Source of the DNA: Chondrosia reniformis
Lineage: Eukaryota > Porifera > Demospongiae > Chondrillida > Chondrillidae
DNA length: 64,000 nt
NCBI GenBank assembly: GCA_947172415.1
Contig: OX359191.1
Coordinates: forward strand, 1,612,001 to 1,676,000
Direction: 5' to 3'
In this document: one piece after another, positions 29,927 to 57,604 of the stretch
Position numbering within the stretch: position 1 is the first letter of the stretch
Layout: each line of letters opens with the position of its first letter
Program-made: the position numbers and the translations under genes
The notes under the pieces: generated by a model
Seen by the model: the letters and a program-made list of their open reading frames with translations, nothing else
Databases searched by the model: none
What the model was told of the DNA's origin: nothing

Positions 29927-29989
29927 GTATTCCCCTTTTTTTCCTCTTAATATTACTTGTTTTAAATTGATTTGAAAGTTTTCTTGGCG

Positions 29990-30221: not shown

Positions 30222-30251
<30 letters not shown>
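29990..30251. repeat. Right part of composite repeat, ending in (GAA)n
   Basis: ATAACGTCTTAGACAAGAGA and TCTTAATTAAAAAATGGCG match 15228-15290; GGTCTATTCCCTAGTTCC and AATAAAAGAAG match 15364-15455. It ends in about ten GAA/AAG units at 30221-30251, exactly where the first copy of the 4.2-kb unit begins. Confidence 0.6.
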
Positions 30252-30252
<1 letters not shown>

Positions 30253-30545
30253 CATTAAAGTAATATATGTATAATAAATAAGCTAATTGTAAAAATAAAA
30301 TTCTCAGTAAAGACCCATAGATTTGGCAGTTGAAGGATCCAATCTGAAGGGGCACCCGATCCCCCACTAGTTACACAGTCATCCTACCAGTTACCGGATA
30401 TATCAACCTCCGACAATATGACTTGATATCTGTTTTTAGGTTATGTAAACACCCACACCACAAACTGGCATACTACAAATAACTCCATTTAGACCATCTG
30501 GTGGTGTGTATATAGCACATACGTATACACAGAAATGAGTTGTTC

Positions 30546-31064
30546 TTAGCTAAGGGTTAAGCATGTCTTTATACAATATTTAGACTGGCTCAGCTGTCTT
30601 CCCTTCACCTCGACAGACAGTTTTCCAACTTTCCTCTTATCCCTCCTTTCTGGTTTAGCGGAGCTTGCTCCGCCTAGTTTCTTCTTTCTCTTAACCACTT
30701 TGCTGAAGGAAGCCTCACTCTGATGAACCGTCGCCTCACCGGGGTGTTTTACTCCATCTCCAAGCTGCGCGTTCTTTCCGTCCAGATCACTTTCCTCTTC
30801 TTTTTCGGCTAGCTTCCCCCACAACTCTCGCACTTTTTTTCTCAGCTGCTCTACTTCTCTCATCAGCGACACAGTCTTCGAGGCCATGCAGAAACAGCAG
30901 ACAAAGCTTCGGTCGTCCAGTAGACCGACGTTCTCCTTGTATCCCAAGCACTGAAAGTGAAACCATCCCCCGCAAATCTCACAGCTCGCCATTTCACCAA
31001 ATTCGCTGTCTTCGCCACATATGCATAAGATTACATAAGATTTTGTCTTCTTTCTAGCCTCCAC
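30546..31064 (-). CDS. PHD-finger/coiled-coil protein, copy 1 (172 aa)
   Basis: A single open exon. Residues 14-60 form a PHD finger of the C-x-C type (CICGED...CEICGGWFHFQC...CCFC: Cys4-His-Cys3 with the conserved Trp before His). Residues 66-90 are a predicted coiled coil (LMREVEQLRKKVRELWGKL). The tail is Lys/Arg-rich. PHD fingers usually read histone H3 tails, but PHD plus coiled coil is also the layout of ORF1 proteins in some non-LTR retrotransposons, and a dead RT fragment is present in the same unit. It is divergent from nuclease-like gene A with 191 bp between start codons. Copy 2 at 34742 is identical in protein. Host gene or former LINE ORF1 is unresolved. Confidence 0.65.
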   Translation of the reverse strand: MEARKKTKSYVILCICGEDSEFGEMASCEICGGWFHFQCLGYKENVGLLDDRSFVCCFCMASKTVSLMREVEQLRKKVRELWGKLAEKEEESDLDGKNAQLGDGVKHPGEATVHQSEASFSKVVKRKKKLGGASSAKPERRDKRKVGKLSVEVKGRQLSQSKYCIKTCLTLS

Positions 31065-31255
31065 TGGATTTCACCAGACATTTACTATCCTTCCGGGAGC
31101 TATTACAAACTCTTCCGGACACCCGATGCTTGCCTGCCGCCATCTTTTTCGCACTTATATATGATTAGCCTTTGTTCGCCCCAATTAACGCCCATGGGCT
31201 AATATGCCTAGCCTAGCCTAGCCAATAAGATTACAGTTACCATGCCAACGTTTTC
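31065..31255. promoter_or_regulatory. Shared divergent promoter between PHD and nuclease-like genes
   Basis: 191 bp between two start codons. It holds CTTCCGGGAGC and CTTCCGGACA (ETS-like), CCGCCATCTTTTTCGC (YY1-like CGCCATCTT), and AGCCAATAAG (inverted-CCAAT-type) after three CCTAG repeats. The same layout occurs in unit 3 (53835-54072). In unit 2 it is split by a DIRS-like element. Confidence 0.45.
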
Positions 31256-32896
31256 ATGACGATTTTTGCACATGCGAACTTGAAGCATCCAATGGACGAG
31301 AAGGTTGACTTTGACGGGTACACTGTTTTTTTCATCAGGGAGGCCTGTGATCTCCTGACAGATCAGCTTCAGCTTGGAACGATCATTTCTCCATCAGATC
31401 ATCTCCGTGATTATGCAAGCACTCCTAACAGTCCCGCCAAGGCTGCTGGTCAATTGACCATTGGCAAGAAGCGTGATAATACAGACTTTTGGAGGCGTCC
31501 TATATCAAAGGAGACCAAATTGCTGGAAAACGTTAAACTTGAGATCAAGAATTTCTTTAAAAACATTGAAAATAAATCAAAGCGGGTCAAATGTTTTTTT
31601 GCACTGGAGATGGAGTGCTGGAGTAGCATTGTTACAGCACTAACGCGACGGAGAAGTACAACGGTTAGAAACGAGACAGAGCTCAGGTATTGCATTGGAA
31701 GCCCAATTATTAATTTCCTAAGCGAGCTTGGAGAGTATAAGGTACGTATTTGTTCCAACAAGGAGATAGGTATGCAAAGATTTCTCCCCTTTCGTATACA
31801 GGCCAAAATGGAGGAGTGTGTGCGAACAGAGGAAACGTATGAAAAAGAGGAGGTAGAGAGGTATTCAGAGGAACCACAAGCAAAGACTATAAGAACACTA
31901 CAAGGTACTGATCCTACAAAGTTTGAAGTTCATTTTCCTTGAATCCTTCGTTATGCTTTAATCCTGTTCCTCCAACAGCCACTCCAAGGAGTGTTCATGT
32001 AGCAAGGTCAGTTTCACAGGGGAGTATTGCAGACTATGTGTTGTTCACTTTGAGAAATGGGAAGGGTGATATTGTGGCTGTAATCATTGAAGCAAAAATG
32101 GACAGTTCACGTCGTAATGCTGTTGCCCAGGTAATTTTGTGCAGCTGTTTATGTGCCTATAGTGCTAACCAGTGAGTGAATCCCCTTCAACATGCAACTT
32201 GGCGATATGCACTATATATTGCCCATGAATGCAAATGCTTACACTAACCAGTGTTTTCATCATGTGTGTATTCTTAATACATTACAGGCAATTGGTTACT
32301 ACGTTGCGTTTACAGTTCTAAATCCTTCTGATGCAATGCCACTTGTTTTTGTACTCACTGAGAAGGACTTACACCTGGTACTGTTTCCTTTTACGAAAGA
32401 AGGAAAAGGCTCACTGGTGAATGCACTGAAAATACAAATTCCACTGTGGACTACAGACGAGGGATCTAGCAAAGAATGTAAATTACCATGGCGTTTGAAT
32501 TTACAGTTGCTTCACGTACTGGCCTCATTGGTATTGGCACAAATATTCAATATCAGACTGAATGTTGAATACTCATTTTCTGATGCAACAGCAAAGGTGC
32601 ATCTATCTGAAAGGATTATTACTGATAAAATGAAGATTGATGAATTGAAAACAAAAGTCGAGGAGACAATAAAGGAAAAGGATAAGGAAATAAAGAGAGT
32701 GAGGGAGGAAAAGGATGAGACAATAAAGGAAAAGGATGAGGAAATAAAGGAAAAGGATGAGGAAATAAAGAGACTGAGGGAGGAAAAGGATGAGGAAAAG
32801 AGACCGAGGGAGGAAAAGGATGAGGAAATAAAGAGAGTGAGGGAGGAAATAAAGAGACTGAGGGAGGCACTTAAGCACAAGGAAGACAAACAATAA
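31256..32896 (+). CDS. PD-(D/E)XK-nuclease-like/coiled-coil protein, copy A (469 aa, three exons)
   Basis: Exons 31256-31904, 31979-32130 and 32288-32896 have GT-AG junctions and are in phase. The N-terminal about 215 residues are helical and of unknown family, ending in ETELRYCIGSPIINFLSELG, a plausible first core helix. Exon 2 encodes IADYVLFTLRNGKGDIVAV then IIEAK and AVAQ, i.e. Asp, 18 residues, Glu-x-Lys, then a helix with Gln, the pattern of PD-(D/E)XK nucleases. Exon 3 continues AIGYYVAFTV, then EKDLHLVLFPF. The last 70 residues are an almost pure Lys/Glu/Arg coiled coil built of EEKDEEIKRLR-type repeats. No known named gene is recognised. Copies B and C keep the same exon structure. 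A Crinkler-like or transposon-linked effector is possible but unproven. Confidence 0.7.
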
Positions 32897-33404
32897 TGAT
32901 TTAATTGACACTATCATCAAAGCATAACTGATTACCAACTTGAACTTTACTGCACTAACATCTACGTATGTTTGTGTTTAAAAAGCAGTGTGCAATTCTT
33001 GAGTTATACTTCAAATACATAATCAGACATTGTAGGCAAAGAGCATGTTAAATATGCACCAGTTGTTAACATGAAGCTGCCAATACACTGATAACTACTT
33101 TATCAGTGAAATTTAATGTAAGCCTGCATGTTTATAGGCATAAATATTGTAGTAGCAGTCCTCATCTATATGTGTATATGTATATACTGCTTTGCATGTT
33201 GACATATTATGGTGGGTATATATATATAGTGGTGTTAACGTTGACATTAATGAGCTCGAGATTATTCTGGCTCTCCTGCGTGGCTCCTTTTCTTATATAT
33301 AATTAATGAAAATATAATTATATATAAGAAAGAGACCAACTGCTGCATGGCCATTTATATAGTCTATATATATAGACTATAAATGCCTATACTCCAGGAT
33401 GAAA
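32897..33404. other. Non-coding 3' flank of nuclease-like gene A with two short hairpins
   Basis: Repeated almost unchanged after copies B (49968-50500) and C (56355-56890). It includes an inverted repeat TCTTATATATAATTA...TAATTATATATAAGA (about 33292-33330) and a TATAGTCTATATATATAGACTATA palindrome near 33357-33382. No coding sequence supported. Confidence 0.6.
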
Positions 33405-33783
33405 TAGATCTCGCCTTCTCCCTGGTGAAAAAAGAAGCAGCTCCGGTCCAGGGAAGGATGGTATCTCCTTTCAAATAATGAGTGCTGATGTTCTAAGAGA
33501 TTTGTGGCTTACCCTGTTAGGAGTATGTTGGAAGAGTGGTATGATTCCCTCAGAATGGCAGAGAAGCTTGGTGGTTCCGGTTCCCAAGAAGCAATGTGGT
33601 GGCATGAGTGTGGCTGATAGATTTAGAGGAATTGCACTAACTTTGGTGCATGGTGTGTAAGGTTTTCTGTCATATTCTAAAGGAGAGGCTGGCTACTGTG
33701 GTTGAGGAATACAATTTGGTCTTGGAAGAACAAGGTGCCACATCAGTTATTGGTGGACATGAGTTGTCATGGTTACAGCTTTG
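33405..33783 (+). pseudogene. Non-LTR reverse transcriptase fragment (unit 1)
   Basis: Encodes the N-terminal part of an RT: FSLVKKEAAP, GKDGISFQIM, PSEWQRSLVVPVPKKQ, FRGIALTL. A 5-bp insertion (GGTCC after GCAGCTCC) and a 3-4 bp CATG insertion break the frame relative to the copy at 50505. A stop follows EEQGATSVIGGHELSWLQL. It has no catalytic core. Confidence 0.75.
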
Positions 33784-33789
33784 AAGGGG

Positions 33790-34741: not shown

Positions 34742-35260
34742 TTAGCTAAGGGTTAAGCATGTCTTTATACAATATTTAGACTGGCTCAGCTGTCTTCCCT
34801 TCACCTCGACAGACAGTTTTCCAACTTTCCTCTTATCCCTCCTTTCTGGTTTAGCGGAGCTTGCTCCGCCTAGTTTCTTCTTTCTCTTAACCACTTTGCT
34901 GAAGGAAGCCTCACTCTGATGAACCGTCGCCTCACCGGGGTGTTTTACTCCATCTCCAAGCTGCGCGTTCTTTCCGTCCAGATCACTTTCCTCTTCTTTC
35001 TCGGCTAGCTTCCCCCACAACTCTCGCACTTTTTTTCTCAGCTGCTCTACTTCTCTCATCAGCGACACAGTCTTCGAGGCCATGCAGAAACAGCAGACAA
35101 AGCTTCGGTCGTCCAGTAGACCGACGTTCTCCTTGTATCCCAAGCACTGAAAGTGAAACCATCCCCCGCAAATCTCACAGCTCGCCATTTCACCAAATTC
35201 GCTGTCTTCGCCACATATGCATAAGATTACATAAGATTTTGTCTTCTTTCTAGCCTCCAC
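34742..35260 (-). CDS. PHD-finger/coiled-coil protein, copy 2 (172 aa)
   Basis: The same 172-residue protein as the copy at 30546, with only silent changes noticed (for example TTTTTCGGC/TTTCTCGGC near the middle, silent in this frame). All PHD zinc ligands and the coiled coil are present. Its upstream region is truncated 131 bp from the start codon by the insertion of a DIRS-like element that separates it from nuclease-like gene B. Start codon as in copy 1. Confidence 0.65.
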   Translation of the reverse strand: MEARKKTKSYVILCICGEDSEFGEMASCEICGGWFHFQCLGYKENVGLLDDRSFVCCFCMASKTVSLMREVEQLRKKVRELWGKLAEKEEESDLDGKNAQLGDGVKHPGEATVHQSEASFSKVVKRKKKLGGASSAKPERRDKRKVGKLSVEVKGRQLSQSKYCIKTCLTLS

Positions 35261-36063
35261 TGGATTTTACAAGACATTTACTATCCTTCCGGGAGCTATT
35301 TCAAACTCTTCCGGACACCCGCTGCTTGCCTGCCGCCATCTTTTTCGCACTTATATATGATTAGCCTTTGTGTAAATGTATTAACTCTTGTTAATGAACA
35401 GCCGTTACGTTACCAGTGTATAGTGATTATTTGCGATCTCACCTTAAATCCTAAACCTGACTCTCAGTTCTCCTATAGTTCGCTTTCGGCTAATACCATC
35501 CCCCAACCTTTACCCTCGACATCATCGATGCCGATAGGCTTTGGCGGTCCGGTCCAAAGAGGAGACCCACACCCTCAATGCTTTGGGTGGTGCCGACTTC
35601 CACAAAATGACAGCGGCACGTGACCCATCACGTAACGCGTCATTCATCCCAAAGCATAGGAAAAACGAAACCACGGAACCGGACCCTGACAACAGCTGGT
35701 AATACACCCAGGCAACATTTCACCTCAGCCCAAAACAGATGTGTATAAAAAACGATCTCAACATTGACCAAAAACGTGAGTTTTTTTTTCCACTATACTT
35801 CTGATCTCTAAACTCCACTAACTAGCCCTTTGCTCACTTCAAAAACTGCAACCAAATGATTTACTAATGCTAACTTTCCTTGAGGCTTTAACCCCATATT
35901 CAAAGACGAATCCATTATCATACATATAGTTACACAAATCAAATTGACAATTATTAATATTCTCCAATAACTAGATAGATGCATATATTCTATATTCATT
36001 AAATAAATAACAGTTATTAATATCCTCTAAATTGTCCACATATCTCCATTCAATAAATAACAC

Positions 36064-37074
36064 TTAAATAGTCCTTTCCAGTAACTGGTTAGATATATTA
36101 GCCAATTCTGACTGAGGGGGACGAATATATAGCTGATATGCCGTACTTTTCCATCGTCCCAATCTTTTAATATCTGTTTCGGGAACTCCCGTACTAGCAG
36201 CAGTAGTTGCTGCTCCAATGCGTAAACTATGACTATTATAGTTCCTTGGGTTGATATCTGAGTAAGCCTCCAGCATTTTCCTAATACCCTTCACTAACTG
36301 AGATCGTGTCAAAGCACTGCCATTTTTATGTATAAAAAGAATCCCAGGCCTGGGACCTCTAATTTTTAAATAATCCAATACAGCAGCCACAGGACAGAGA
36401 TCACACCCTGTGCTATTTAAATAAACCGTTGTACCTTGCCTTTCCTGGTCTGTTTTTGAAGCTTTTATTTTAATAGCAATCTGAGATGGCTTAAATGGAT
36501 TATTGAATGTGATATCACCCAATGATAAATGTCTAGATGGGTCATATTGAACCCCATCTGCTAATAAAAATTCTGCTGATCTCAGAAAAGCAAAAAATCC
36601 AATATTAACTGCTGCCCATAATAATCTATTCTCAAATTCTTTTGGATTCCTGGCTAATTGTTTCTTAATTAACCTTAATATAGCTGGAGTAATTGGTAGC
36701 CTGATAAGCGGTCCCTTCTGAATATGTGGTTTCTGTCTAGCAATACCCTTTAGCAATAATTCTATTCTAGGTGATATACCACAGTACCACAAGCTTTCGC
36801 TTATATGAAAATATCTAATAGCTGATAAATATATTCGAATAGTTTTGACAGATACATTTTCCTTGCCCATAGATGTCACAAAAAGGAATAATGCATAATC
36901 CGATGTTGGTAAATAGGGTAACGAGAACTGAATGCAAAATTTTTTAAACCTTTTCATGCCAGAATTGTAGCATCTCCTGGTAGACTCTGATATTCCTTGC
37001 CTAATGAATTGGTGAGCATTCTCTTCCAATCCTTTGAGAGCCAATCTGGACGATGAGTGACTAACATCTGCCAT
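36064..37074 (-). CDS. Tyrosine recombinase of the DIRS-like element (336 aa)
   Basis: Integrase that replaces DDE integrase in YR retroelements, inserting circular DNA by a tyrosine nucleophile. N-terminal SAM-like domain (GISESTRRCYNSGMKRFKKF), catalytic domain with FLRSAEFL (Arg I), HSLRIGAATTAA (H-x-x-R), LGRWKSTAYQLYIR (Trp and nucleophile Tyr). All key residues are present and there are no stops. It overlaps the RT frame by about 120 bp in another frame, as usual for these elements. Confidence 0.85.
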   Translation of the reverse strand: MADVSHSSSRLALKGLEENAHQFIRQGISESTRRCYNSGMKRFKKFCIQFSLPYLPTSDYALFLFVTSMGKENVSVKTIRIYLSAIRYFHISESLWYCGISPRIELLLKGIARQKPHIQKGPLIRLPITPAILRLIKKQLARNPKEFENRLLWAAVNIGFFAFLRSAEFLLADGVQYDPSRHLSLGDITFNNPFKPSQIAIKIKASKTDQERQGTTVYLNSTGCDLCPVAAVLDYLKIRGPRPGILFIHKNGSALTRSQLVKGIRKMLEAYSDINPRNYNSHSLRIGAATTAASTGVPETDIKRLGRWKSTAYQLYIRPPQSELANISNQLLERTI

Positions 37075-38763
37075 AAGCTGTCTGGAATTACAGTAGGACT
37101 TTTTTCTGCTTGAGGAACCTGAGTAAAGAATAATTTTAATTTATTTCGAGATATGCTATCAGCAGGGCCATTCTCAATGCCACTCAAATGATCGGCTGTA
37201 AGTGTAAATTGAAAAATAGCTGTAAAAAAAGTTAAACATCTCAATAAATGCATCACAATTCCTGATGGTTCTTTAGAGGAACCCTTCCTTATTGCCTGCA
37301 CTACAGCCATATTGTCACACTGACATAAGACATGGTGGTTTGACCATGAAGGTCCCCATATAGCGGCTGCTAATACTATTGGAATTAACTCCTTGATCAT
37401 TATATTAACATCCTGCCAGCTACTATCCCAGCTACCCTGAATCCACTGAGACTGCCACAATGCCCCACAGCCCCAGGTGCCTGAAGCATCCGAGCTAAAG
37501 GTAATGGAAGGTACAACCATGTGAGCTAAATGAAGAAACCCTACACCATTCCACCTCTCACAAAAAGTAGACCACCAAGCCAAATCAGATCTAAAACCCA
37601 CGTTTAACCGAATAAAGTGATGCTTCTTATTAGCAATTGATAATGTATCGAACATTCTCCTCAGAAAGCAGCGGCCCTGAGGAATCACTTTGCAAGCAAA
37701 ATTCAATAAACCCAGCAATTTCTCCAACTCCCTTCTAGTTGCCGCTTTCTTGGAGGACCACTTGCGTAATTCATCTTTAATTTTTGATAACTTTGTACTC
37801 GGTAAACTGGCTATTTGCCTTTCTGAATCAATTTCAATTCCCAAAAATGTTAATCTAGTTTCAGGCCCTTCAATCTTATCCTCAGCCAGGGGAACCCCTA
37901 GCATTGTACACGTAGAAATTAATATTTCTAAGTATTTACTACACTCATCAGTAGCAGGCCTACCTACAACCAAAAAATCATCAAGGTAATGTAGTATATT
38001 CTGGCAACCATTAGCCCGTACAATCCATTCCAATGCATCAGCATATGCATTAAATAACACTGGAGCCGACCTTAAGCCAAAAGGTACTTGTTTATCAAAA
38101 TAAGATTTATCTCTCCACACCATGCCAAGAAGGTGGCGATCATCAGGGTGCACTGGAACATTCCGAAAGGCATTTGCAACATCAATCTTAGCCATTAATG
38201 CCCCTTTACCTGCCTGCCACAACATCCTTGCGGCGTCCTCCACAGAGGAATAGACCATGCTAGCTGACACCTTAGAAATGCCATCATTGATGCTAACTTT
38301 TTCTGGGAATGATAAATCAACAATCAATCTCCACTTCCCAGGAGTTGACTTAGGAATTACCCCAAATCGATTAGCCATGCAGCCAATGAAAGACTTTCTC
38401 CTGAATGGACCAGCAATATGTTTCTTAACTAATTCATTATTTAAGTATGCATCCACCACCTCTGACTTTTCCATTGATGAGGGACAGTTGTTTTTAGCAG
38501 ACCTAAATGGCCTAGTATAATCATAACCTATTCGAACTCCACATCTCACCCCATTAACCAGATGATTAACCCATTGCCTATTCTGGTGACCCTCCAGAGC
38601 TTTCTCCCAAGCTTCAGCTTTGAAAGGTGTATCTACCTGTCTTGCTTCTTCTGGAATATATGGTTGTACCATTGCAAATTTAGACGCTGACTCCTGAATC
38701 TCTACAAATCGTTTGGCAAGCAGCGGTGCTGATACAAAGCATCTTGGTAAGACCTGACCTATA
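36954..38763 (-). CDS. Reverse transcriptase/RNase H of the DIRS-like element (about 600 aa)
   Basis: Open frame from a likely acceptor at 38764 (GTATATTATAG/GTCAGG); the frame itself is open from 38789. RT motifs: NRFGVIPKS, WRLIVDLSFPE, AKIDVANAFRNVPVHP, FGLRSAPVLFNAYADALEW, YLDDFLVVG (active site intact), LTFLGIEID. RNase H follows: SSDASGTWGCGALW, KELIPIVLAA, CDNMAVV, GPADSISR, with Asp, Glu and Asp ligands visible. It runs into the recombinase frame at its 3' end. Upstream splicing to gag is inferred from the acceptor. Confidence 0.85.
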
Positions 38764-39217
38764 ATATACACATAAATGTTTATAACCATGCATTCCCCAG
38801 ATAAACAACCTGTTAGATATATCTATATATCAATTCTTTGTATGAATATGTATATAGAAAAGAATAATTAAATATACCTATAAAGACCATTCGGTTAATT
38901 ATGAATAAATTCAGATATCATTTCAATTCATTTACCAATAAAGCTTAATCAAATGGTACCACCACATTTTATAATTATGTCATGCACAATGCCAAATCCA
39001 TTAATCCAGATATATATATTAACTCAATGGAGTCAACAAATAACTTAGATATATGCAAATAACCGTATATGGTCTACATATCAACAATGTTCAGTTATAC
39101 ATAAGCTAATTAAGCAAACATGAAATTATTCAGCTACTAATGGCATTAATATTCCCATACAAAGCCATGTATATTTAAGCTGAAGCATAAATTTATCCAG
39201 CTACAGCCATCTACAAT

Positions 39218-41408: not shown

Positions 41409-41667
41409 TGAATAGCGCTATCTGTTCGCAAATAAAAACTGAAAGAATTAACGTCGTTTCCACCGTAGGTTCACGTTGTTGAATGCACAAACATCACCTA
41501 GTAACAGCTTAACCAATCCACTTGATTCTCTTATCGATTTTAGCATACTATTCGCGGAGATTTCATATAGCGTATACCTTATATACAATTATATATATAT
41601 ATATATGCGTACATCCTTCACTCGTCCATTAACTCCGTTTACCTCCGTAAACTCCATTAAACTCCAT

Positions 41668-41782
41668 TTAACAAAGTCTCCAGTGATTGGTGCATGGGCT
41701 GCTCGCCCCAATTAACGCCCACGGGCTAATATGCCTAGCCTAGCCTAGCCAATAAGATTACAGTTACCATTCCAACATTTTC
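41668..41782. promoter_or_regulatory. Promoter half of nuclease-like gene B
   Basis: Resumes the unit sequence after the DIRS-like element: AAAGTCTCCAGTGATTGGTG (CCAAT box, inverted), then three CCTAG repeats and AGCCAATAAGATTAC just before the start codon. Same as 53965-54072 in unit 3. Confidence 0.4.
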
Positions 41783-47700: not shown

Positions 47701-49967
47701 TGCCTGCCAAACAAGTAAGAAGTGAAAGAGTTGTAAAAAAGGCATTGGAAATGCTGTTTCACTGGCAAATGTGTCTTTAGTTCCATTATCTGATTCCTGA
47801 CTACTATCGCACTGATCAAATTCATAAGTTGATTCTCTTTCTGACTCAGATTCAGAGCTGGAGGTGTCTTCAGCAAACATCTATAGAAATAGGATTTTCT
47901 CAGGCTAAATAACATAAAAGTCTTAGACTATACATACAAGAAGCTGCAATGGTGATTTCAGAGGATAATACAGGCTGCTAGATTAATTCAAATACCTATG
48001 CATGCAGTCTTCTGAGGTAAAGGGGGGTAGTGCAAAGAAAGGGAAAGCGAGGCAGCTAGCCGTGAAGGAGAAAAGGAGGTAGCCCTGAAGAGAGGGAAAG
48101 GGAGGCAGCCGTGATGAGAGAGAAAGGGAGGCAGCCGTGATGAGAGAGAAAGGGAGGCAGCTATGAAGGAAAAAGAAAATTGTATATTAACAGGACATGT
48201 GTTAGCTCTGTGTAATCCATGTACAGTGCTACACGGGGCAAAATATAGTGCGCAGAGCACATGAAGCACTAAATACGCAGTGTATAATTCATAAACTAAA
48301 GTTATATGGTCTAGTACATGAGCAAGGACATGTGGGGATTCCCGGGGGTCCATTCAAGATATATACCCCTTCAGATCTAGACTTTGATGGAGTGTCTTCA
48401 AAGGCGTATGGCAATTTTAGATTTGCATATTGTTTCTTGCATTAATTATATACTTTCGTTATGATTGAAAAAGTTAATAACAACATAAACCACTAATTGT
48501 TACCCTGTCTAGGCCTGGTATACAGTATGCAGTAACTGAGTCGATCATGTACATATGTATCCAGAGTGACTTTTTTCAAGGGAAATGTAGTTTAATTTAA
48601 CTTGTAAAGTTTTATTTTAGGCATAAAATCTTTACACATCATAAGGTATAACTGAATAGTTGGCCGTGGGATTAGGGAATTTCTAACTGGCTTGAAAAAG
48701 AGTGAATGGAAGGCTACTCGACTACTATAGAGACCTAGTCACGCCTACACGACATTAATTTATCATTTTAAGCTTTTGAATTTTTGTGAGCCTCTGTCTT
48801 CTGTTAGAGAGACACTGCAGGGTGTCTCTTTTAACAGTCAGACCGAATATGTAGCTATAAACGTACTCACAGTGGATGAAGATTCCTCGCCGGTACGACA
48901 ACAGCTATCACTTAAATCCATAGCCTGCTCAATAAGTCCTCCTTTAGTAATAAGTGGAGAATCTACGTCAAACGTAGAGTCGTCGCTTGAACTATATTGG
49001 CTTAGGTCAAACTCCTTCTGCCATTGCTTCGTTTGTACATCGAAATGCTGATTTTTGTGAAGATAATATGTCCGAGGAGCAACGATTTGAGAACAATGAG
49101 GACAAAACTTTCCTCCTTTATCATTAGTGCTACTCATAGTACCGTTTTCGGAACTTATAGTATACCCGCAACCGTTGTTCTTCGGAGCGTTTAAAGACGA
49201 AACATCATTATAAACGGCCTTGTTGACGGACTCGTGTTAACCCGTATATTCTTACCACGGGACCGTGACGTATCGTATCGTTAAAACGCCGTGTATACTC
49301 CCGTCAGCCTGGCATGCCACGGATTTCGTGAATACCCGTTCACAAAGGCAGTTTTCCCTGTGAACTTTATGCTTATACTAACCAGTGTTTTCATCATGTG
49401 TGTATTCTTAATACATTACAGGCAATTGGTTACTACGTTGCGTTTGCAGTTCCTTCTAATGCATTGCCACTTGTTTTTGTACTCACTGAGAATGACTTAC
49501 ACCTGGTACTGTTTCCTTTTATGAAAGAAGGAAAAGGCTCACTGGTGAATGCACTGAAAATACAAATTCCACTGTGGACTACAGACGAGGGATCTAGCAA
49601 AGAATGTAAATTACCATGGCATTTGAATTTACAGTTGCTTCACGTACTGGCCTCATTGGTATTGGCACAAATATTCAATATCAGACTGAATGTTGAATAC
49701 TCATTTTCTGATGCAACAGCAAAGCTGCACCTATCTAAAAGGATTATTACTGATAAAATGAAGATTGATGAATTAAAGAGACTGATGGAGGAAAAGGATG
49801 AGAAAATAAAGGAAAAGGATGAGAAAATAAAGGAAAAGGATGAGAAAATAAAGGAAAAGGATGAGGAAATAAAGAGACGGAGGGAGGAAATAAAGAGACT
49901 GAGGGAGGAAAAGGATGAGGAAATAAAGAGAGTGAGGGAGGAAATAGAGACTGAGGGAGGCACTTAA
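41783..49967 (+). CDS. PD-(D/E)XK-nuclease-like/coiled-coil protein, copy B (444 aa), intron 2 expanded by transposons
   Basis: Exons 41783-42419, 42478-42629 and 49422-49967. The joins are in phase and open. The core is conserved (ISDYVLFTLRNGKGD, IIEAK, AVAQ/AIGYYVAF). Intron 2 is about 6.8 kb because it holds half of an inverted-repeat element and a whole EnSpm/CACTA element. The coiled coil is shorter than in A and C and has EKDEKIKEKDEKIK repeats. A 2-bp deletion near 49945 (GAAATAGAGACT against GAAATAAAGAGACT) shifts the last codons to ETEGGT and ends the protein early. Closer to C than to A (both have TRRRSRPASVRNE where A has TRRRSTTVRNE). It can be functional only if the long intron is spliced. 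Confidence 0.65.
42660..43104. mobile_element. Half of the inverted-repeat element in intron 2 of copy B
   Basis: It retains about 20 bp of the left arm (CATAAAGTTGCCAAAGCTAA), then an ATTATTATT run and the right half matching 55255-55640 of copy C. It ends exactly at TTTGGCAAC, where the EnSpm element is inserted. Confidence 0.7.
43528..44935 (-). CDS. Companion (second) protein of the EnSpm element, multi-exon
   Basis: Exons read by eye: 44935 to about 44615 (Ser-rich N-terminus, then coiled coil MEHATAIEELKKESATIKEQ), about 44540-44470 (SVKQLHQSYGKENQF), about 44390-44305 (KIKNKILDELRVKFVDKKEA), about 44210-44110 (basic), about 44055-43905 (WEQLSYHFMTEESGGSDDE, HKLPWRSES) and 43835-43528 (acidic Ser/Glu tail SGSDSEYCSDSD). 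The joins checked are in phase with GTAAGT-type donors. The role is probably DNA binding or subterminal repeat recognition like TnpA, by analogy only. Confidence 0.55.
45208..49137 (-). CDS. EnSpm/CACTA transposase (tnp2-type), two exons
   Basis: Exon 1 starts at 49137 with FCPHCSQIVAPRTYYLHKNQH, a Cys2-His2-like zinc motif, and ends at about 48862 (TCCACT/GTGAGT). Exon 2 starts at 47880 after CTATTTCTATAG and is open for 890 codons. It has an acidic Ser/Glu N-terminus, Cys pairs (CPKC), then the tnp2 core: LTLNIDWFSPYEHGNYSVGA, NIILVGVIPGPGEPHLTVN, CGFLGHRATLGCNKC, and YPIIDPMHNLFLGTGKRM. No stop in the domain. It mobilises the element by cutting at the CACA termini. It appears intact. Confidence 0.85.
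47890..48830. other. Transposase intron with GAGA-type purine repeats
   Basis: Contains four imperfect repeats of GAGAGAAAGGGAGGCAGCCG-type sequence (48030-48170). No supported gene; the small open frames are low-complexity. Confidence 0.5.
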
Positions 49968-50504
49968 GCACAAGGAAGACAAACAATAATGATTTAATTA
50001 ACACTATCATCAAAGCATAACTGATTACCAACTTGAACTTTACTGCACTAACATCTACGTGTGTTTGTGTTTAAAAAGCAGTGTGCAATTCTTGAGTTAT
50101 ACTTCAAATACATAATCAGACATTGTAGGCAAAGAGCATGTTAAATATGCACCAGTTGTTAACATGAAGCTGCCAATACACTGATAACTACTTTATCAGT
50201 GAAATTTAATGTAAGTATGCATGTTTATATATAGGCATAAATATTGTAGTAGCAGTCCTCATCTATATATGTGTATATATACTGCTTTGCATGTTGACAT
50301 ATTATGGTGGGTATATATATATAGTGGTGTTAACGTTGACAGTAATGAGCTCGAGATTATTCTGGCTCTCCTGCGTGGCTCCTTTTCTTATATATAATTA
50401 ATGAAAATATAATTATATATAAGAAAGAGACCAACTGCTGCATGGCCATTTATATAGTCTATATATATATATAGACTATAAATGCCTATACTCCAGGATT
50501 AAAT

Positions 50505-50873
50505 AGATCTCGCCTTCTCCCTGGTGAAAAAAGAAGCAGCTCCAGGGAAGGATGGTATCTCCTTTCAAATAATGAGTGCCGATGTTCTAAGAGATTTGTG
50601 GCTTGCCCTGTTAGGAGTATGTTGGAAGAGTGGTATGATTCCCTCAGAATGGCAGAGAAGCTTGGTGGTTCCGGTTCCCAAGAAGCAATGTGGTGGCATG
50701 TGTGTGGCTGATAGATTTAGAGGAATTGCACTAACTTTGGTGGTGTGTAAGGTTTTCTGTCATATTCTAAAGGAGAGGCTGGCTACTGTGGTTGAGGAAT
50801 ACAATTTGGTTTTGGAAGAACAAGGTGCCACATCAGTTATTGGTGGACATGAGTTGTCATGGTTACAGCTTTG
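50505..50873 (+). pseudogene. Non-LTR reverse transcriptase fragment (unit 2)
   Basis: Counterpart of 33405-33783 with a longer open frame (116 codons): AAPGKDGISFQIMSADVLRD, WQRSLVVPVPKKQCGG, FRGIALTLVVCKVFCHIL, then stop. It is only the finger part of an RT; the catalytic YxDD half is absent. Non-functional but less damaged than the unit 1 copy. Confidence 0.75.
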
Positions 50874-50879
50874 AAGGGG

Positions 50880-51855
50880 ATCCTAGCTTTAATCAGTCTG
50901 TATCAGTGCATGCATGTGGAGGTGTGTCAAGTTGGTTCTCTCTCCCAGACACCACCCCTCACTCTATATAGCCCAACCTCAGCCAATAACATATAATAAA
51001 TGTTAATAATATATACATTAATACTAGTTCACATTACTGGTGTATATAATATTACATGTTGCTCTTGGGGCCTTAATGCTTCTCCTGTAAAGTATAAAAT
51101 TGCATGTTGGGCAGTCCCTTTCTGTAGTGAGGGATGCATATGCCCACTTGTACTGGGAGGAACACACCCTTCAAATAGTCCTCCACTCTCATGCGATTCA
51201 CTGGAACCAGATCTTGACTCAATCTAACATAAATAGACCAAAACTTTAAAAAATAATAATATATAAACAGTGATATATAGGCTGGCGAGGTGGATGGAAG
51301 CTTGCGATAGGAATTTGCAGACTTGGGAAATTAAAATATTGTATACGTGAATGAAACTGATAGAATTCTCACCATGTAGAGATGTCCCAACACTCATAGG
51401 GCATTCACTTTTTGACTTTGACTATAGGTGGAAGTAAAATGGTGCCGCTTGGTCCACGTGGACTGGTCTGGCAAGGCCAGATGTTATCTCAAAGGGATGA
51501 TATTTACTCTTAATAATATTATACGGTCAAAGTCATTGAAGTAATATATGTATAATAAATAAGCTAATTGTAAAAATAAAATTCTCAGTAAAGACCCATA
51601 GATTTGGCAGTTGAAGGATCCAATCTGAAGGGGCACCCGATCCCCCACTAGTTACACAGTCATCCTACCAGTTACCGGATATATCGACCTCCGACAATAT
51701 GACTTGATATCTGTTTCAGGTTATGTAAACACCCACACCACAAACTGGCATACTACAAATAACTCCATTTAGACCATCTGGTGGTGTGTATATAGCACAT
51801 ACGTATACACAGAAATGAGTTGTTCTTAGCTAAGGGTTAAGCATGTCTTTATACA
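50880..51855. other. Non-coding spacer joining units 2 and 3
   Basis: Nearly identical to 33790-34741. No gene. Confidence 0.6.
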
Positions 51856-52199
51856 ATATTTAGACTGGCTCAGCTGTCTTCCCTTCACCTCGACAGACAG
51901 TTTTCCAACTTTCCTCTTCTCCCTCCTTTCTGGTTTAGCGGAGCTTGCTCCGCCTAGTTTCTTCTTTCTCTTAACCACTTTGCTGAAGGAAGCCTCACTC
52001 TGATGGGATCAACTAAAGTATACGATCACGGCCATTTAACCGCATGGGATGACGTCACCGATTACGTCATCGACACCCTAACCGTCGATGACGTCAGTCA
52101 ATTAGAAAGACAAGTGCTGTCGGGTTAGAAAGATTCAAGTTCGTTTTTCCTCGAGTCATTTTGTTACTTCGTTCCGATTGAATTATAATCTTTGCTAGT

Positions 52200-52373
52200 A
52201 TGGACAACGGACTTGATGCCCCAGACGAAAGACCCGCATGCCGCATCTGCGGAGATTTCGCTACCGGCAACCATTTCGGCGTTCTGAGTTGTGAAGCGTG
52301 TAAAAGTTTCAAGCAAGGAAAGAGTCCAACTAAAAATGACAAATACAAAGAACTCAAAATGCGTGGTGACTAG
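52200..52373 (+). CDS. Captured nuclear-receptor first zinc finger ORF (57 aa)
   Basis: ATG to TAG inside the Merlin element, convergent with the transposase. Residues 14-31, [18 protein letters not shown], continue EACKSF. This is the nuclear-receptor DNA-binding zinc finger I with all four Cys (C-x2-C-x13-C-x2-C) and a CEACKS P-box. Similarity ends at SF; the usual second Phe, the basic residues and zinc finger II are absent, and the remaining residues ([11 protein letters not shown]) look unrelated. It is probably one host exon picked up by the transposon. Whether it is expressed is unknown; the left TIR with CRE-like sites lies just upstream. It is below the usual ORF-length cut-off. Confidence 0.75.
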
Positions 52374-52386
52374 TTTTCTTAGGACT

Positions 52387-53392
52387 CTAAACTGGATACT
52401 GTGTGGCGATATCTCTCAGCAAGCTCGCAAAGACTGCGGATGATGACCCTCCATACTTGTCTTTCCACAGAAATTCATCCAGGTAAGATGGAATGAATTC
52501 GTGCTTGCATCCTTTCATCTTCTTCAGTTTGCCCTTTGCGCGCTCCCAGTAACTCTCGATATTGTTTGTATGTACCCCGGTTACTGGATCTTTGAAGTGG
52601 AGACTGTGGTTCACAGTTGAATGCGAAGAGACATTGGGTAATGCACCAACACGGCGGTATGCGCTCCACTGGTCTGAATAGATGATTGTGCCTGGTCTGA
52701 CGTGGCCTTGTATAATGGGAAGCAATGTCACTGCATCCCTTTGTTGGACAACCTCCATGTAACCATGTGCAGGAGTGGTGGACGTGTCAACCATTCCAAA
52801 TACCCACACTTCATCTCTGGGTGGGTGTCCCCGATGATGCTGTATTACAGGGCAATAACAGACCATTAATATAATGTACCTTTATTATTCATTACACCCC
52901 CCAGTATACAATCCCTTTCTAGCTTACTTTGCATTTGTGTACAAATAGCGACTCATCTATTTGTACCACCACACCATTTCCTCCAAGCATTGTTGGGCCA
53001 TCATTTATGAGCCGAGTTGAGCAGACATCCCTGCAAAACTGGTACACATCCACTGCTGTAACCTCTGATATCTCGGCTTGAAGTGCAGCAGTGCACACAC
53101 CCACATCCATGCTCCATAGGTATAGCAGGAAGATCCACTTGTTTAATGGCAGCTTGGATTTTGCAAAAAAACTACCTGCTCGGATGGTCTTCATTGTGTG
53201 GCAACATGTGCAGCGCCAAGTGTAGCCATCCTTTGAGCCCCCCTGTTCTGTCCGCTCTCTAAAAACCATGGCAGTGCCATTGTTGCATTTCTGGCAGTCC
53301 ATACTAGAGGCTAGCAATCCCTTATTTTTCATCCAGTCAATTAGCTTACTTTTCTCTCCAAAAATAATAGCTCCAAGGGAAAACAGAGACAT
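52387..53392 (-). CDS. Merlin (ISXO2/IS1016-like) transposase, 305 aa, two exons
   Basis: Exon 1 is 53392-52928 (start MSLFSLGAIIFG; an open frame continues upstream but this Met fits the family start). The donor is AAA/GTAAGC. Exon 2 is 52839-52387 after CTGTAATACAG, joined in phase as VHKCK-HHRGHPPRDEVWVFG, which restores the family motif. An N-terminal zinc ribbon (CQKC, CTCC) precedes the catalytic domain. Catalytic Asp in VVQIDESLF, Asp in YSDQWSAY, Glu in NNIESYWERAKGKLK. No stop. It probably cuts the TIRs. It appears capable of activity. Confidence 0.85.
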
Positions 53393-53834
53393 TTTGGCTT
53401 CGCTGTGTAATCTTAAATAACCCGCTAAAACAACACTAGCACGTGATCCAGTGCATAAATGAATGTATAATTGCATTCATTGTTATTTCATTAAATAACG
53501 AAATGTATCAAAAATGCGCTAAATTCTCAACGGTCTTTCTAATTGACTGACGTCATCGACGGTTAGGGTGTCGATGACGTAATCGGTGACGTCATCCCAT
53601 GCGGTTAAATGGCCGTGATCGTATACTTTAGTTGATCCACACAGTCTTCGAGGCCATGCAGAAACAGCAGACAAAGCTTCGGTCGTCCAGTAGACCGACA
53701 TTCTCCTTGTATCCCAAGCACTGAAAGTGAAACCATCCCCCGCAAATCTCACAGCTCGCCATTTCACCAAATTCGCTGTCTTCGCCACATATGCATAAGA
53801 TTACATAAGATTTTGTCTTCTTTCTAGCCTCCAC

Positions 53835-54072
53835 TGGATTTTACCAGACATTTACTATCCTTCCGGGAGCTATTACAAACTCTTCCGGACACCCGCTGCT
53901 TGCCTGCCGCCATCTTTTTCGCACTTATATATGATTAGCCTTTGTAAATGTATTAACTCTTGTTAAGAAAGTCTCCAGTGATTGGTGCATGGGCTGCTAG
54001 CCCCAATTAACGCCCACGGGCTAATATGCCTAGCCTAGCCAATAAGATTACAGTTACCATGCCAACGTTTTC
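53835..54072. promoter_or_regulatory. Shared divergent promoter, unit 3 (undisturbed form)
   Basis: 238 bp with CTTCCGGGAGC, CTTCCGGACA, CCGCCATCTTTTTCGC, GTGATTGGTGC and AGCCAATAAG. It is longer than unit 1 by about 50 bp (TAAATGTATTAACTCTTGTT to GGGCTGCT), a segment deleted in unit 1. It provides the empty site for the DIRS-like insertion in unit 2. Confidence 0.45.
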
Positions 54073-56354
54073 ATGACGACTTTTGCACATGCGAACTTGA
54101 AGCATCCAATGGACGAGAAGGTTGACTTAGACGCGTACAATGTTTTTTTCATCAGGGAGGCCTGTGATCTCCTGACAGATCAGCTTCAGCTTGGAACGAT
54201 CATTTCTCCATCAGATCATCTCCGTGATAATCAAATCACTCCTAAAAGTCCCGCCAAGGCTGCTGGTGAATTGACCATTGGCAAGGAGAATGAGAATACA
54301 GACTTTTGGGAGCGCTCTATATTAGAGGAGACCAAATTGCTGGAAAACGTTAAACGTGAGATCAAGGATTTCTTTAAAAAAATTGAAAAAAATTCAAAGC
54401 GGGTCAAATGTTTTTTTGCACTGGAGATGGAGTGCTGGAGTAGCATTGTTACAGCACTAACGCGACGGAGAAGTAGGCCTGCATCGGTTAGAAACGAGAC
54501 AGAGCTGAGGTATTGGATTGGAAACCCAATTATTAATTTCCTAAGCGAGCTTGGAGAGTATAAGGTACGTATTTGTTCCAACAAGGAGATAGGTATGCAA
54601 AGATTTCTCCCCTTTCGTATACAGGGCAAAATGGAGGAGTGTGTGCGAACAGAGGAGGTAGAGAGGTATTCAGAGGAACCACAAGTAGAGACTATAGTAG
54701 CACTACGAAGTACGAGCTTCATTTTGCTTGAATCCTTCCTTATGCTTCAATCCTTTTCCTCCAACAGCCAGTCCACAGAGTGTTCATGTAGCAAGGTCAG
54801 TTTCACAGGGGAGTATTGCAGACTATGTGTTGTTCACTTTGAGAAATGGGAAGGGTGATATTGTGGCTGTAATCATTGAAGCAAAAATGGACAGTTCAAG
54901 ACGTAATGCTGTTGCCCAGGTAATTTAGTGCAGCTGTTTATATGCCTATAGTGCATATCACCATAAAGTGCATATCGCCATAAAGTTGCCAAAGCTAAAA
55001 TTTAGGTAGGAAGTGATTTCAATGGTAAATTGTCAGTTTAAAGCAAAATTTGTAATAAATGACTGTTTTATTTCAGAGTTTAAGCATTGAACTTGGACAA
55101 CAGAGAGAACATCCATAGATGTAAAACTTCTAGCATGTTGAAGGGGATTTGCTCTAAAAAAGGTAAGATATGCAGTGATTAGCGCTAAGGAGTAAATTTT
55201 TATGTTTGGTGGTGAACATGCTACATTATTTCACTTCCTATCTAGTCTATGAAATATAAAATTTACTACTTGAAATATTACATCTTGAGAATTTTTTTCC
55301 TGAACAAAAAAATTTACTCCTTAGCGCTAATCACTGCATATCTTACCTTAATTTTTTAGAGCGAATCCCCTTCAACATGCTAGAAGTTTTACATCTATGG
55401 ATGTTCTCTCTGTTTTCCAAGTTCAATCTCTGTTGAACTTAGATAAAGCTTAAAATTTCTAAAAGTCAGCAAAAATGGCAACTTCTTCATTAAAAATGGA
55501 TTGCGCAATAAAATAATCGCCATCTGGAGCCCTCATGCTTAAACTCTGAAATAAAACAGTCATTTATTACAAATTTTGCTTAAAACTGACAATTCACCGT
55601 TGAAATCACTTCCTACCTAAATTTTAGCTTTGGCAACTTTATGGCGATATGCACTACGTATATATTGCCCATGAATACAAATGCTTACACTAACCAGTGT
55701 TTTCATCATGTGTGTATTCTTAATACATTACAGGCAATTGGTTACTACGTTGCGTTTGCAGTTCTAGATCCAATAGATGCAATGCCACTTGTTTTTGTAC
55801 TCACTGAGAATGACTTACACCTGGTACTGTTTCCTTTTATGAAAGAAGGAAAAGGCTCACTGGTGAATGCGCTGAATATACAAATTCCACTGTGGACTAC
55901 AGACGAGGGATCTAGCAAAGAATGTAAATTACCATGGCGTTTGAATTTACAGTTGCTTCACGTACTGGCCTCATTGGTATTGGCACAAATATTCAATATC
56001 AGACTGAATGTTGAATACTCATTTTCTGATGCAACAGCAAAGCTGCACCTATCTGAAAGGATTATTACTGATAAAATGAAGATTGATGAATTGAAAGCAG
56101 AATTAGAGGAGACAATAAAGGAAAAGGATGAGGAATTAAAGAGACTGAGGGAGGAAAAGGATGAGGAAATAAAGAGACGGAGGGAGGAAATAAAGAGACT
56201 GAGGGAGGAAAAGGATGAGGAAATAAAGAGACTGAGGGAGGAAAAGGATGAGGAAAAGAGACCAAGGGAGGAAAAGGATGAGGAAATAAAGAGAGTGAGG
56301 GAGGAAATAAAGAGACTGAGGGAGGCACTTAAGCACAAGGAAGACAAACAATAA
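54073..56354 (+). CDS. PD-(D/E)XK-nuclease-like/coiled-coil protein, copy C (469 aa)
   Basis: Exons 54073-54709, 54768-54919 and 55734-56354, in phase and open. Conserved core IADYVLFTLRNGKGD, IIEAK, then AIGYYVAFAV after splicing. The C-terminal coiled coil has more EEKDEEIKRLR units than the other copies, with the same KHKEDKQ end as A. Exons 1 and 2 are nearly identical to copy B. Intron 2 (54920-55733) is occupied by an inverted-repeat element. Head-to-head with disrupted PHD copy 3. Confidence 0.7.
54968..55650. mobile_element. Inverted-repeat (fold-back) element in intron 2 of copy C
   Basis: Starts CATATCGCCATAAAGTTGCC and ends with its inverse GGCAACTTTATGGCGATATG. The arms match for about 120 bp and continue as a second inverted block (CAACATGCTAGAAGTTTTAC against GTAAAACTTCTAGCATGTTG). 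No ORF. Copy B has its right half. Copy A has only two fused scraps (GAATCCCCTTCAACATGC and TTGGCGATATGC near 32178-32208). Confidence 0.85.
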
Positions 56355-57604
56355 TGATATAATTAACACTATCATCAAAGCATAACTGATTACCAACTTG
56401 AACTTTACTGCACTAACATCTACGTATGTTTGTGTTTAAAAAGCAGTGTGCAATTCTTGAGTTATACCTCAAATACATAATCAGACATTGTAGGCAAAGA
56501 GCATGTTAAATATGCACCAGTTGTTAACATGAAGCTGCCAATACACTGATAACTACTTTATCAGTGAAATTTAATGTAAGCCTGCATGTTTATAGGCATA
56601 AATATTGTAGAAGCAGTCCTCATCTATATGTGTATATATACTGCTTTGCATGTTGACATATTATGGTGGGTATATATAGTGGTGTTAACATTATTGAGAT
56701 TATCATGGCTTTCCTGCATGGCTCCTTTTCTTATATATAATTAAGTTAAAGTTACAAGAGTATATATAAAGCTATTCTTCAACTATATACAATAGACCCA
56801 GGTAGATTTTTCTAAAAGTCGACTTTGAAGTGAAAATATAAGAAAGAAACCAACTGCTGGCCATTTATAGTCTATAGAACTAGATCGACAGTATTAAGTT
56901 CAGTTTTTGATTTTTGTTGGCATTAATCACATTAAGATCCGGAGTTAACAAAGATGCAAATTGTTCTTCCATTCCTGCCTTACACAACACTATTCTGAGG
57001 TTATATATTCCTGATCCAGTAACGCAACTAAAGTGCAGTTTCAATACAAACTACAACTTGCTTGTATGTTCCTTTAATCTAGATCAATTTATGCTCCAAT
57101 GACCATAGCATCTTTACAAATTACATAGAAAACGGCAATCACGTATATTTGGACTTTGGTCCTGAATTTGGCGCTCCATATATATTTCCCCTTGACGTCA
57201 CTATATATTTAAGTTAACTATTCTCTTCTTACTAATGTACGCGTAGGTATGCTAAATCTGCTGCTGTTTAGATACAGATACAGGTAATCGAATGACCAAT
57301 ATAAATAGATTCATAACTAACAATGAATACACTAGTATACATGTGCCGCGGTCATGCAAAGCTCATAAAACTGGCCCAGGCAAGCACAGCACGCATACCT
57401 TACTTACTTGCCTGGGCTTGCCTTTAGGGTTTAATCCTTTAGAAACCCCATTGTAGCTAAAATTAGAATTACAGGTAGACTTTTCTAGAAATCGAAGCGA
57501 AACCATGCATATATAAAAGTACCACGGAATAAGGAAAAACGATATTATACGTCTATAGAGATTTAGTAATTACATTAGATTAGTTCCAGTTCTTTGTGAT
57601 AATA
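56355..57604. other. Intergenic: end of unit 3 and 5' region of kinase gene
   Basis: 56355-56890 is the unit flank without the RT fragment. A short hairpin, GCCCAGGCAAG ... CTTGCCTGGGC with a 26-nt loop, lies at about 57370-57417. No coding sequence was supported. Confidence 0.5.

What the first reader, a model, noticed from the sequence alone, without database searches (positions are those of the whole stretch)
30252..56890. Triplicated head-to-head pair: PHD-finger protein and PD-(D/E)XK-nuclease-like coiled-coil protein
Seen: three units, each with a PHD/coiled-coil ORF (minus) and a three-exon gene (plus) separated, in undisturbed copies, by 191 or 238 bp. The plus gene has D-x18-E-x-K then Gln (IADYV...IIEAK...AVAQ) spanning an exon boundary, and a Lys/Glu-rich coiled coil. 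All three keep open frames and in-phase splice sites despite heavy transposon insertion in introns and promoter. Known: this Asp/Glu-x-Lys/Gln pattern is the PD-(D/E)XK nuclease signature, and PHD fingers read histone tails. Inference: a paired chromatin-reader/nuclease system, either domesticated or still selfish. The family is one I do not recognise.
Basis: partly seen in the sequence, partly recalled or inferred. Interest (0 to 1): 0.85.

Follow-up and report, generated by a model that had tools for sequence, protein, structure and literature searches.

The report
Triplicated animal gene, probable DNA-cutting enzyme
An invertebrate chromosome segment was copied three times in a row, each copy keeping an open gene for a probable DNA-cutting protein whose front part seems to change unusually fast, while the neighbouring chromatin-reader-like frame looks like a passenger rather than a working partner.

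Summary
Three tandem copies of a ~4.2 kb segment (A 30249-34444, B 34445-51529, C 51530-~56744) carry a minus-strand PHD-finger ORF and, head-to-head, a plus-strand three-exon gene; large transposons interrupt B and C. The spliced proteins (469/444/469 aa) share D-x18-E-x-K...Q, matching the PD-(D/E)XK nuclease motif, but no family library, PDB sequence search or fold model confirmed the fold. Frame-keeping indels and lack of stops support constraint on the plus gene. In exon 1, copy A differs from B/C by 34-37 replacement but only 2 silent changes (p 0.008-0.019), above the 3'-flank rate. That suggests diversifying selection, but intron 1 is also diverged, so gene conversion stays open. The 'paired system' reading is not supported: one arrangement was copied twice, the PHD ORF has no in-frame start before the finger, and copy C's PHD is cut by an ISXO2/Merlin-type element with 143 bp missing, while its nuclease-like gene stays open. 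Best reading: a tandemly amplified, fast-evolving nuclease-like host gene with a hitchhiking PHD ORF, perhaps from a LINE. No eukaryotic sequence collection could be searched.

The parts
30549..31070 (-). Copy A PHD-finger ORF with a short leucine-zipper-like stretch, 174 aa stop to stop; first ATG is codon 27, inside the finger
   Evidence: (PF00628 E 3.7e-6)
31256..31904 (+). Copy A plus gene, exon 1 (start codon inferred)
31979..32130 (+). Copy A exon 2, holding D, E-x-K and, as last codon, Q
32288..32896 (+). Copy A exon 3 and stop; Lys/Glu-rich tail, coiled coil by inspection
33408..33780 (+). Copy A LINE reverse-transcriptase-like fragment, frame-shifted (recognised by eye; the copy B version has no Pfam hit)
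34745..35266 (-). Copy B PHD ORF, open, translation identical to A
35390..41670 (-). DIRS-like retroelement in the copy B spacer (approximate ends; class name recalled): reverse transcriptase and tyrosine recombinase
   Evidence: RVT_1 E 4.5e-18, Phage_integrase E 3.5e-6; one search shows the uninterrupted site in C
41783..42419 (+). Copy B exon 1
42478..42629 (+). Copy B exon 2 with the motif
43105..49362 (-). DNA transposon of EnSpm/CMC type (class name recalled) in copy B intron 2; ends CACAAGG/CCCTGTG, 3-bp AAC duplication
   Evidence: (Transposase_21 E 5.8e-13)
49422..49967 (+). Copy B exon 3; 2-nt deletion alters and shortens the tail
50503..50874 (+). Copy B LINE reverse-transcriptase-like fragment, 123 aa open
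   Evidence: no Pfam hit
51829..52005 (-). Copy C PHD ORF, C-terminal remnant
52006..53638 (-). ISXO2/Merlin-like transposon (Merlin: name recalled) inside copy C PHD ORF; 106-bp identical terminal inverted repeats; 143 bp of the ORF missing at the site
   Evidence: (DDE_Tnp_IS1595 E 6.8e-20)
53639..53840 (-). Copy C PHD ORF, N-terminal remnant
54073..54709 (+). Copy C exon 1
54768..54919 (+). Copy C exon 2 with the motif
54949..55656 (.). Nested inverted-repeat element (MITE-like) in copy C intron 2; copy A keeps a short remnant by inspection
55734..56354 (+). Copy C exon 3 and stop

Best explanation
A segment of an animal genome (perhaps a demosponge, a guess) was tandemly duplicated twice. 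Its functional content is one three-exon gene for a probable PD-(D/E)XK-superfamily, metal-dependent DNA- or RNA-cleaving protein. On this reading D231, E250 and K252 (copy C numbering) form the metal/catalytic site, Q263 lies on the following helix, the Lys/Glu tail is a coiled coil that multimerises the protein, and the N-terminal ~135 residues bind a regulator or target. The copies kept open frames while exon 1 gained replacement changes faster than silent changes, as expected for a gene in a biological conflict (intracellular defence or selfish nuclease). The PHD ORF is most likely a 5'-incomplete gene or a remnant related to LINE ORF1, carried along in the duplicated segment. SHOWN: tandem copies, exon structure by sequence, open frames, motif, replacement excess, broken PHD in copy C. 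INFERRED: splicing itself, nuclease fold and activity, conflict role, origin of the PHD ORF, species group.
For: Tandem units share their left ends, at 4196-nt and ~17.1-kb spacing, and B and C have identical left junctions. Frame constraint on the plus gene: A/C coding indels are 6, 12 and 18 nt (3 of 3 multiples of three), against 0 of 8 in the A/B, 1 of 4 in the A/C and 1 of 6 in the B/C 3' flank; 71 A/C substitutions made no stop, whereas 126 of 5000 simulations with 72 random substitutions were stop-free. Replacement excess in exon 1: A/B 34 N and 2 S, A/C 37 N and 2 S, Fisher p 0.019 and 0.008. Replacement-site divergence exceeds the 3' flank: A/B 34 of 501 against 16 of 1525, p 8e-11; A/C 37 of 501 against 11 of 381, p 0.004. 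Motif with five hydrophobic residues before E-x-K: 93 of 20000 shuffles, 0 of 127 E. coli ORFs. PHD fate independent of the nuclease-like gene. PHD fingers are found in many CR1/L2 ORF1 subgroups (PMC4120745 abstract and passages).
Against: No convincing profile or structure match to any nuclease. The looser motif occurs in 705 of 20000 shuffles and 6 of 127 E. coli ORFs, and both forms miss all 8 ORFs of a stretch that encodes HsdR, McrC and Mrr, so the motif is neither specific nor sensitive. Intron 1 is diverged between A and C (8 of 58 aligned bases differ, 16 gap columns), more than the A/C flank (p 0.0014) and more than exon 1 silent sites (p 0.0012), so silent sites may not be a fair neutral yardstick here. 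B against C shows no excess (omega 0.9 before the coiled coil), and A/C exons 2 and 3 give 0.49 and 0.66. B/C and A/B coding indels are multiples of three in 5 of 7 and 6 of 8 cases (the rest at B's altered tail), and coiled-coil indels may be repeat-unit slippage. No LINE ORF2 follows the PHD ORF, and no RRM or CCHC domain was found in it. No transcript data.
Confidence: 0.52

Rival explanations
1. One reading: PHD protein and nuclease form a functional divergently transcribed pair, the reader directing the nuclease to chromatin or neutralising it.
For: Head-to-head arrangement in all three units, spacer 185 bp in A and 232 bp in C (B's spacer holds a retroelement); a complete C4HC3 finger that keeps the Trp aligned with that of Set3/Spp1 fingers; A and B PHD ORFs have the same translation.
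Against: Copy C's PHD is destroyed while its nuclease-like gene stays open; no start codon before the finger in any of 3 copies; one ancestral pairing, so no independent recurrence; A/B identity is too recent to show selection (7 substitutions in 924 nt).
Confidence: 0.1
2. The exon 1 divergence of copy A is gene conversion or recombination with an older paralogue, and selection need not be invoked.
For: The divergence is patchy: 21 of 34 changes fall in 31412-31576, and 7 more in the last 24 bases of exon 1 next to a diverged intron 1. Intron 1 differs more than the flank, p 0.0014.
Against: A neutral donor should bring silent changes too: 2 of ~135 silent sites against 34-37 of ~501 replacement sites. 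A donor that had itself been under diversifying selection would reconcile both.
Confidence: 0.35
3. The plus gene is itself a transposon-encoded or transposon-derived gene and the unit a decayed mobile element.
For: Transposon-rich region; LINE RT-like fragment in units A and B; no relatives confirmed in the prokaryote and viral scans, which is weak.
Against: No inverted repeats of 16 nt or more at the edges of unit A; unit boundaries are those of tandem duplication; no transposase family in the Pfam scan of the spliced protein.
Confidence: 0.15
4. The protein is not a nuclease; the D...E-x-K...Q residues are coincidence in an orphan coiled-coil protein.
For: No convincing database match; loose motif in 705 of 20000 shuffles.
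Against: Full hydrophobic strand before E-x-K, Q at a position typical of the superfamily (recalled), all residues invariant in 3 copies.
Confidence: 0.27

Closest known systems
PD-(D/E)XK (restriction-endonuclease-like) nuclease superfamily
   Same: Order and spacing of Asp, Glu-x-Lys and Gln, with hydrophobic stretches after the Asp and before the Glu (motif level; superfamily pattern recalled)
   Different: No significant profile match to the curated families searched; the N-terminal and coiled-coil regions match nothing known in those libraries
CR (Crinkler-RHS-type) proteins with REase domain (reviewed in PMC5289972, section 11 read)
   Same: Eukaryotic, duplicated, transposon-rich context, REase-type nuclease predicted as the active part
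   Different: No Ubl header, P-loop NTPase, kinase or HTH family found; no LXLFLAK motif in any of 3 proteins
PHD-containing ORF1 of CR1/L2 LINE retrotransposons (PMC4120745, abstract, passages and section 12)
   Same: PHD finger on the N-terminal side; a coiled coil beside the PHD is recorded for CR1 subgroup 3, and PHD alone for L2 subgroup 4 and CR1 subgroup 6
   Different: No RRM or CCHC domain, no EN/RT ORF2 downstream on the same strand; the RT-like fragment in the unit lies on the opposite strand
PHD fingers of Set3, Spp1, MLL5 and BPTF (H3K4me3 readers, function recalled)
   Same: C4HC3 pattern and core Trp; best PDB sequence match Set3, E 1.5e-5
   Different: Similarity limited to the finger and a short stretch behind it; other cage residues not established; start of the protein unknown

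Membership tests
PD-(D/E)XK nuclease superfamily | Catalytic D-x(n)-(D/E)-x-K, with following helix residue | tested here: met
   D231-x18-E250-x-K252, Q263 invariant in 3 of 3 copies; specificity limited
PD-(D/E)XK nuclease superfamily | Significant profile similarity to a member family | tested here: not met
   Pfam, NCBIfam, PADLOC, PHROGs, PDB sequences: none convincing; weak PADLOC PDC-S11 match over 21 residues at the E-K-Q stretch, E 0.016
PD-(D/E)XK nuclease superfamily | alpha-beta-beta-beta-alpha-beta core fold | tested here: inconclusive
   Spliced protein not admissible for prediction; exon 1 alone pLDDT 40.8, first 124 residues of exon 3 alone 45.7
PD-(D/E)XK nuclease superfamily | Metal-dependent nucleic-acid cleavage | not testable with these tools
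   Needs bench assay
CR (Crinkler-RHS-type) proteins | Ubl or other recognised header domain | tested here: not met
   No Pfam Crinkler or Ubl family listed (the scan's filters drop most matches above E 0.1); no LXLFLAK motif
CR (Crinkler-RHS-type) proteins | NTPase or kinase coupled to REase domain | tested here: not met
   No P-loop or kinase family listed
CR1/L2 LINE ORF1 (PHD type) | PHD finger, in some subgroups with a coiled coil | tested here: met
   PF00628 at residues 16-61; V73-L76-V80-L83-L87 spacing, no coiled-coil program was run
CR1/L2 LINE ORF1 (PHD type) | ORF2 with endonuclease and RT downstream on the same strand | tested here: not met
   No minus-strand ORF of 100 aa or more at 28500-30300; decayed sequence not tested further
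PHD-finger proteins | C4HC3 zinc-binding pattern | tested here: met
   (pattern by inspection)

The most novel reading that the evidence does not exclude
A lineage-restricted animal nuclease family, expanding by tandem duplication, whose variable N-terminal region evolves under diversifying selection: an intracellular 'restriction-like' conflict gene (anti-invader or selfish) in an early-branching animal, amplified next to, and perhaps originally regulated with, a transposon-derived histone-tail reader.
Probability: 0.16. Interest if true: 0.72.

Novelty: new member of a known kind. Interest (0 to 1): 0.38.

Why it matters
If the fold and the replacement excess hold up, this would be a fast-evolving restriction-nuclease-like gene in an early-branching animal, a type of conflict protein better known from bacteria, fungi and oomycetes (recalled). 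It would also be a test case of whether divergently placed PHD ORFs are partners or passengers.

Tried and rejected
Relatives were sought in viral contigs with the spliced alignment and with the PHD domain, and in genome contigs with the alignment and with the nuclease core: 0 confirmed of 20, 10, 31 and 94 candidate stretches. These scans use exact 7-8-residue patterns in prokaryote and virus collections, so they say little about animals. Phages by tblastn: 5 records, E 9-10, chance. PDB: 1 hit at E 0.021 and 23 at E 0.083-9.7, none a nuclease, many of them coiled coils. AlphaFold2 on exon 1 and on part of exon 3 apart: mean pLDDT below 50, not searched further. A plan to build PD-(D/E)XK family profiles from prokaryote genomes for hhalign was dropped, because no usable genome handle could be obtained.

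LINE origin of the whole unit as one element was rejected: the PHD ORF and the RT-like fragment lie on opposite strands. A short intron joining an upstream ATG-GCG-GCA start to the PHD frame was considered by eye (22 or 61 nt): the first is very short for an animal intron, the second has an unusual acceptor; neither adopted (sequence). Targeted hypermutation of one base in exon 1 was considered and rejected: the 34 changes are spread over 11 kinds of substitution, the commonest seen 8 times.

Papers: PMC4120745, abstract, passages and section 12; PMC5289972, passages and section 11. Zhang et al. 2016 (gkw221) is not held and is known here only through the review and recall. Searches bearing on whether such a family or pair is in print; in the rows shown (titles and abstract starts; one search showed 15 of 44) I saw none describing it, and searches returned no paper. 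Only open-access papers are searched.
Full report
OBSERVATION. The region is a tandem array of three related segments. Units A (30249) and B (34445) start 4196 nt apart; B and C start about 17.1 kb apart because B holds two large insertions. The A/B match runs on across the unit edges, and B and C have identical left junctions, as expected of tandem duplication; A's left edge abuts a GAA microsatellite. Unit C matches A up to about 56744, with a short partial match to 56889, and lacks the RT-like fragment. Each unit holds a PHD ORF, whole or broken, on the minus strand and a three-exon gene on the plus strand.

THE PLUS GENE. With GT-AG introns the three copies give 469, 444 and 469 aa, A 89% and B 94% identical to C. 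D231, E250, K252 and Q263 are invariant and all lie in exon 2; Q263 is its last codon. Copy B's tail is altered by a 2-nt deletion. Splicing is inferred from sequence; there are no transcripts.

IS IT A NUCLEASE? The motif agrees with PD-(D/E)XK: Asp followed by a hydrophobic stretch, a hydrophobic strand ending in E-A-K, then Gln (superfamily description recalled). Against chance, a loose form of the motif occurs in 705 of 20000 shuffles and 6 of 127 E. coli ORFs. A strict form, set after seeing the sequence, occurs in 93 of 20000 shuffles and 0 of 127 ORFs. Neither form finds any of the 8 ORFs in a stretch encoding HsdR, McrC and Mrr (annotation), so the motif test is weak in both directions. 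Profile searches gave nothing convincing: Pfam, NCBIfam, PADLOC (20, one weak 21-residue match at the motif, E 0.016), PHROGs (21, best E 0.01, outside the motif), PDB sequences. AlphaFold2 could be given only exon pieces and returned pLDDT 40.8 and 45.7. The fold is a reasoned inference, not shown.

IS IT UNDER SELECTION? Between A and C the coding sequence differs by 71 substitutions and indels of 6, 12 and 18 nt with no stop and no frame change; 126 of 5000 simulations with 72 random substitutions were stop-free. For B/C (40 substitutions) the simulation with 45 gave 527 of 5000. Coding indels were multiples of three in 3 of 3 (A/C), 5 of 7 (B/C) and 6 of 8 (A/B) cases, the exceptions being the 2-nt and 22-nt gaps at B's altered tail; 3' flank indels in 0 of 8, 1 of 6 and 1 of 4 cases for A/B, B/C and A/C. 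In exon 1, A differs from B by 34 replacement and 2 silent changes and from C by 37 and 2, on about 501 replacement and 135 silent sites (Fisher p 0.019 and 0.008). B and C are nearly identical here (3 replacement, 0 silent), so this is one comparison, not two. Exon 1 silent divergence (1.5%) is close to the A/B 3' flank (16 of 1525; p 0.65), whereas replacement divergence is about 7% (p 8e-11 against the A/B flank; p 0.004 against the A/C flank, 11 of 381). This suggests diversifying selection. Against it: the changes are patchy (21 of 34 in 31412-31576, 7 in the last 24 bases); intron 1 differs at 8 of 58 aligned bases with 16 gap columns, more than flank (p 0.0014) and more than exon 1 silent sites (p 0.0012); B against C shows no excess (omega 0.9); and A/C exons 2 and 3 give 0.49 and 0.66, A/B 1.52 and 2.53, on few changes. 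The tests were chosen after looking at the data.

THE PHD ORF. The finger is a good PHD (PF00628 E 3.7e-6), closest in the PDB to Set3 and Spp1 fingers (E 1.5e-5). But the ORF opens directly after a stop in all three copies, and its first ATG is codon 27, inside the finger (copies A and B). In copy C an ISXO2/Merlin-type element (52006-53638, 106-bp identical inverted repeats, transposase domain E 6.8e-20) sits in it and 143 bp are missing. The plus gene of copy C is open, so the two do not share a fate. PHD fingers occur in many CR1 and L2 LINE ORF1 subgroups (PMC4120745 abstract and passages), a possible source; but no ORF2 follows it and it has no RRM or CCHC match, so a 5'-incomplete host gene is about as likely.

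SURROUNDINGS. Insertions: a DIRS-like element in the B spacer (RVT_1 E 4.5e-18, Phage_integrase E 3.5e-6), an EnSpm/CMC-type element in B intron 2 (Transposase_21 E 5.8e-13; 3-bp AAC duplication) and a MITE-like inverted repeat in C intron 2, of which A retains a remnant by inspection. Element class names are recalled. The neighbourhood carries sushi-repeat and Frizzled-domain ORFs and a nuclear-receptor-type zinc finger, which together point to an animal (by recall); a demosponge is my guess and is not tested.

MECHANISM AND VERDICT. Most likely a duplicated host gene for a restriction-nuclease-like enzyme with a multimerising coiled coil and a changeable N-terminal region, in some biological conflict; the PHD ORF is a passenger. 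The duplication, open frames and broken PHD are shown; splicing, the nuclease activity and the conflict role are inferred. The finding is real but less remarkable than claimed; interest rests on the replacement excess and on the absence of a convincing family match in the libraries searched. No collection of animal genomes was available. On rechecking, I lowered the main confidence slightly (0.55 to 0.52) and the novel case (0.17 to 0.16), and raised the not-a-nuclease rival (0.25 to 0.27), because the intron 1 contrast and the missing RRM/CCHC domains weaken supporting points.

Noticed in passing
52200-52370 (+), inside the ISXO2/Merlin-like element 52006-53638: A 57-aa ORF with the first zinc finger of a nuclear-receptor-type DNA-binding domain (zf-C4, E 3.5e-10): possible capture of a host exon by a DNA transposon.
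   Followed up: partly
43105-49362: EnSpm/CMC-type element with an open 890-aa transposase ORF and a 3-bp AAC duplication, so possibly a recent insertion.
   Followed up: partly
33408-33780 and 50503-50874 (+): LINE reverse-transcriptase-like N-terminal fragment carried in units A and B and not matched in C; recognised by eye, no Pfam hit for the B copy.
   Followed up: partly
6260-14345: Array of about 970-bp direct repeats, 5-8 copies by family, containing sushi-repeat ORFs on the minus strand: probably recent internal expansion of a sushi-domain gene.
   Followed up: no
25846-27729 (-): Two similar Frizzled-type cysteine-rich domain ORFs in tandem (Fz E 5.9e-9 for the one at 25849-26514; the other by inspection).
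   Followed up: no
29608-29926: A 320-bp palindromic inverted repeat, 90% identical to its own reverse complement, just left of unit A.
   Followed up: no
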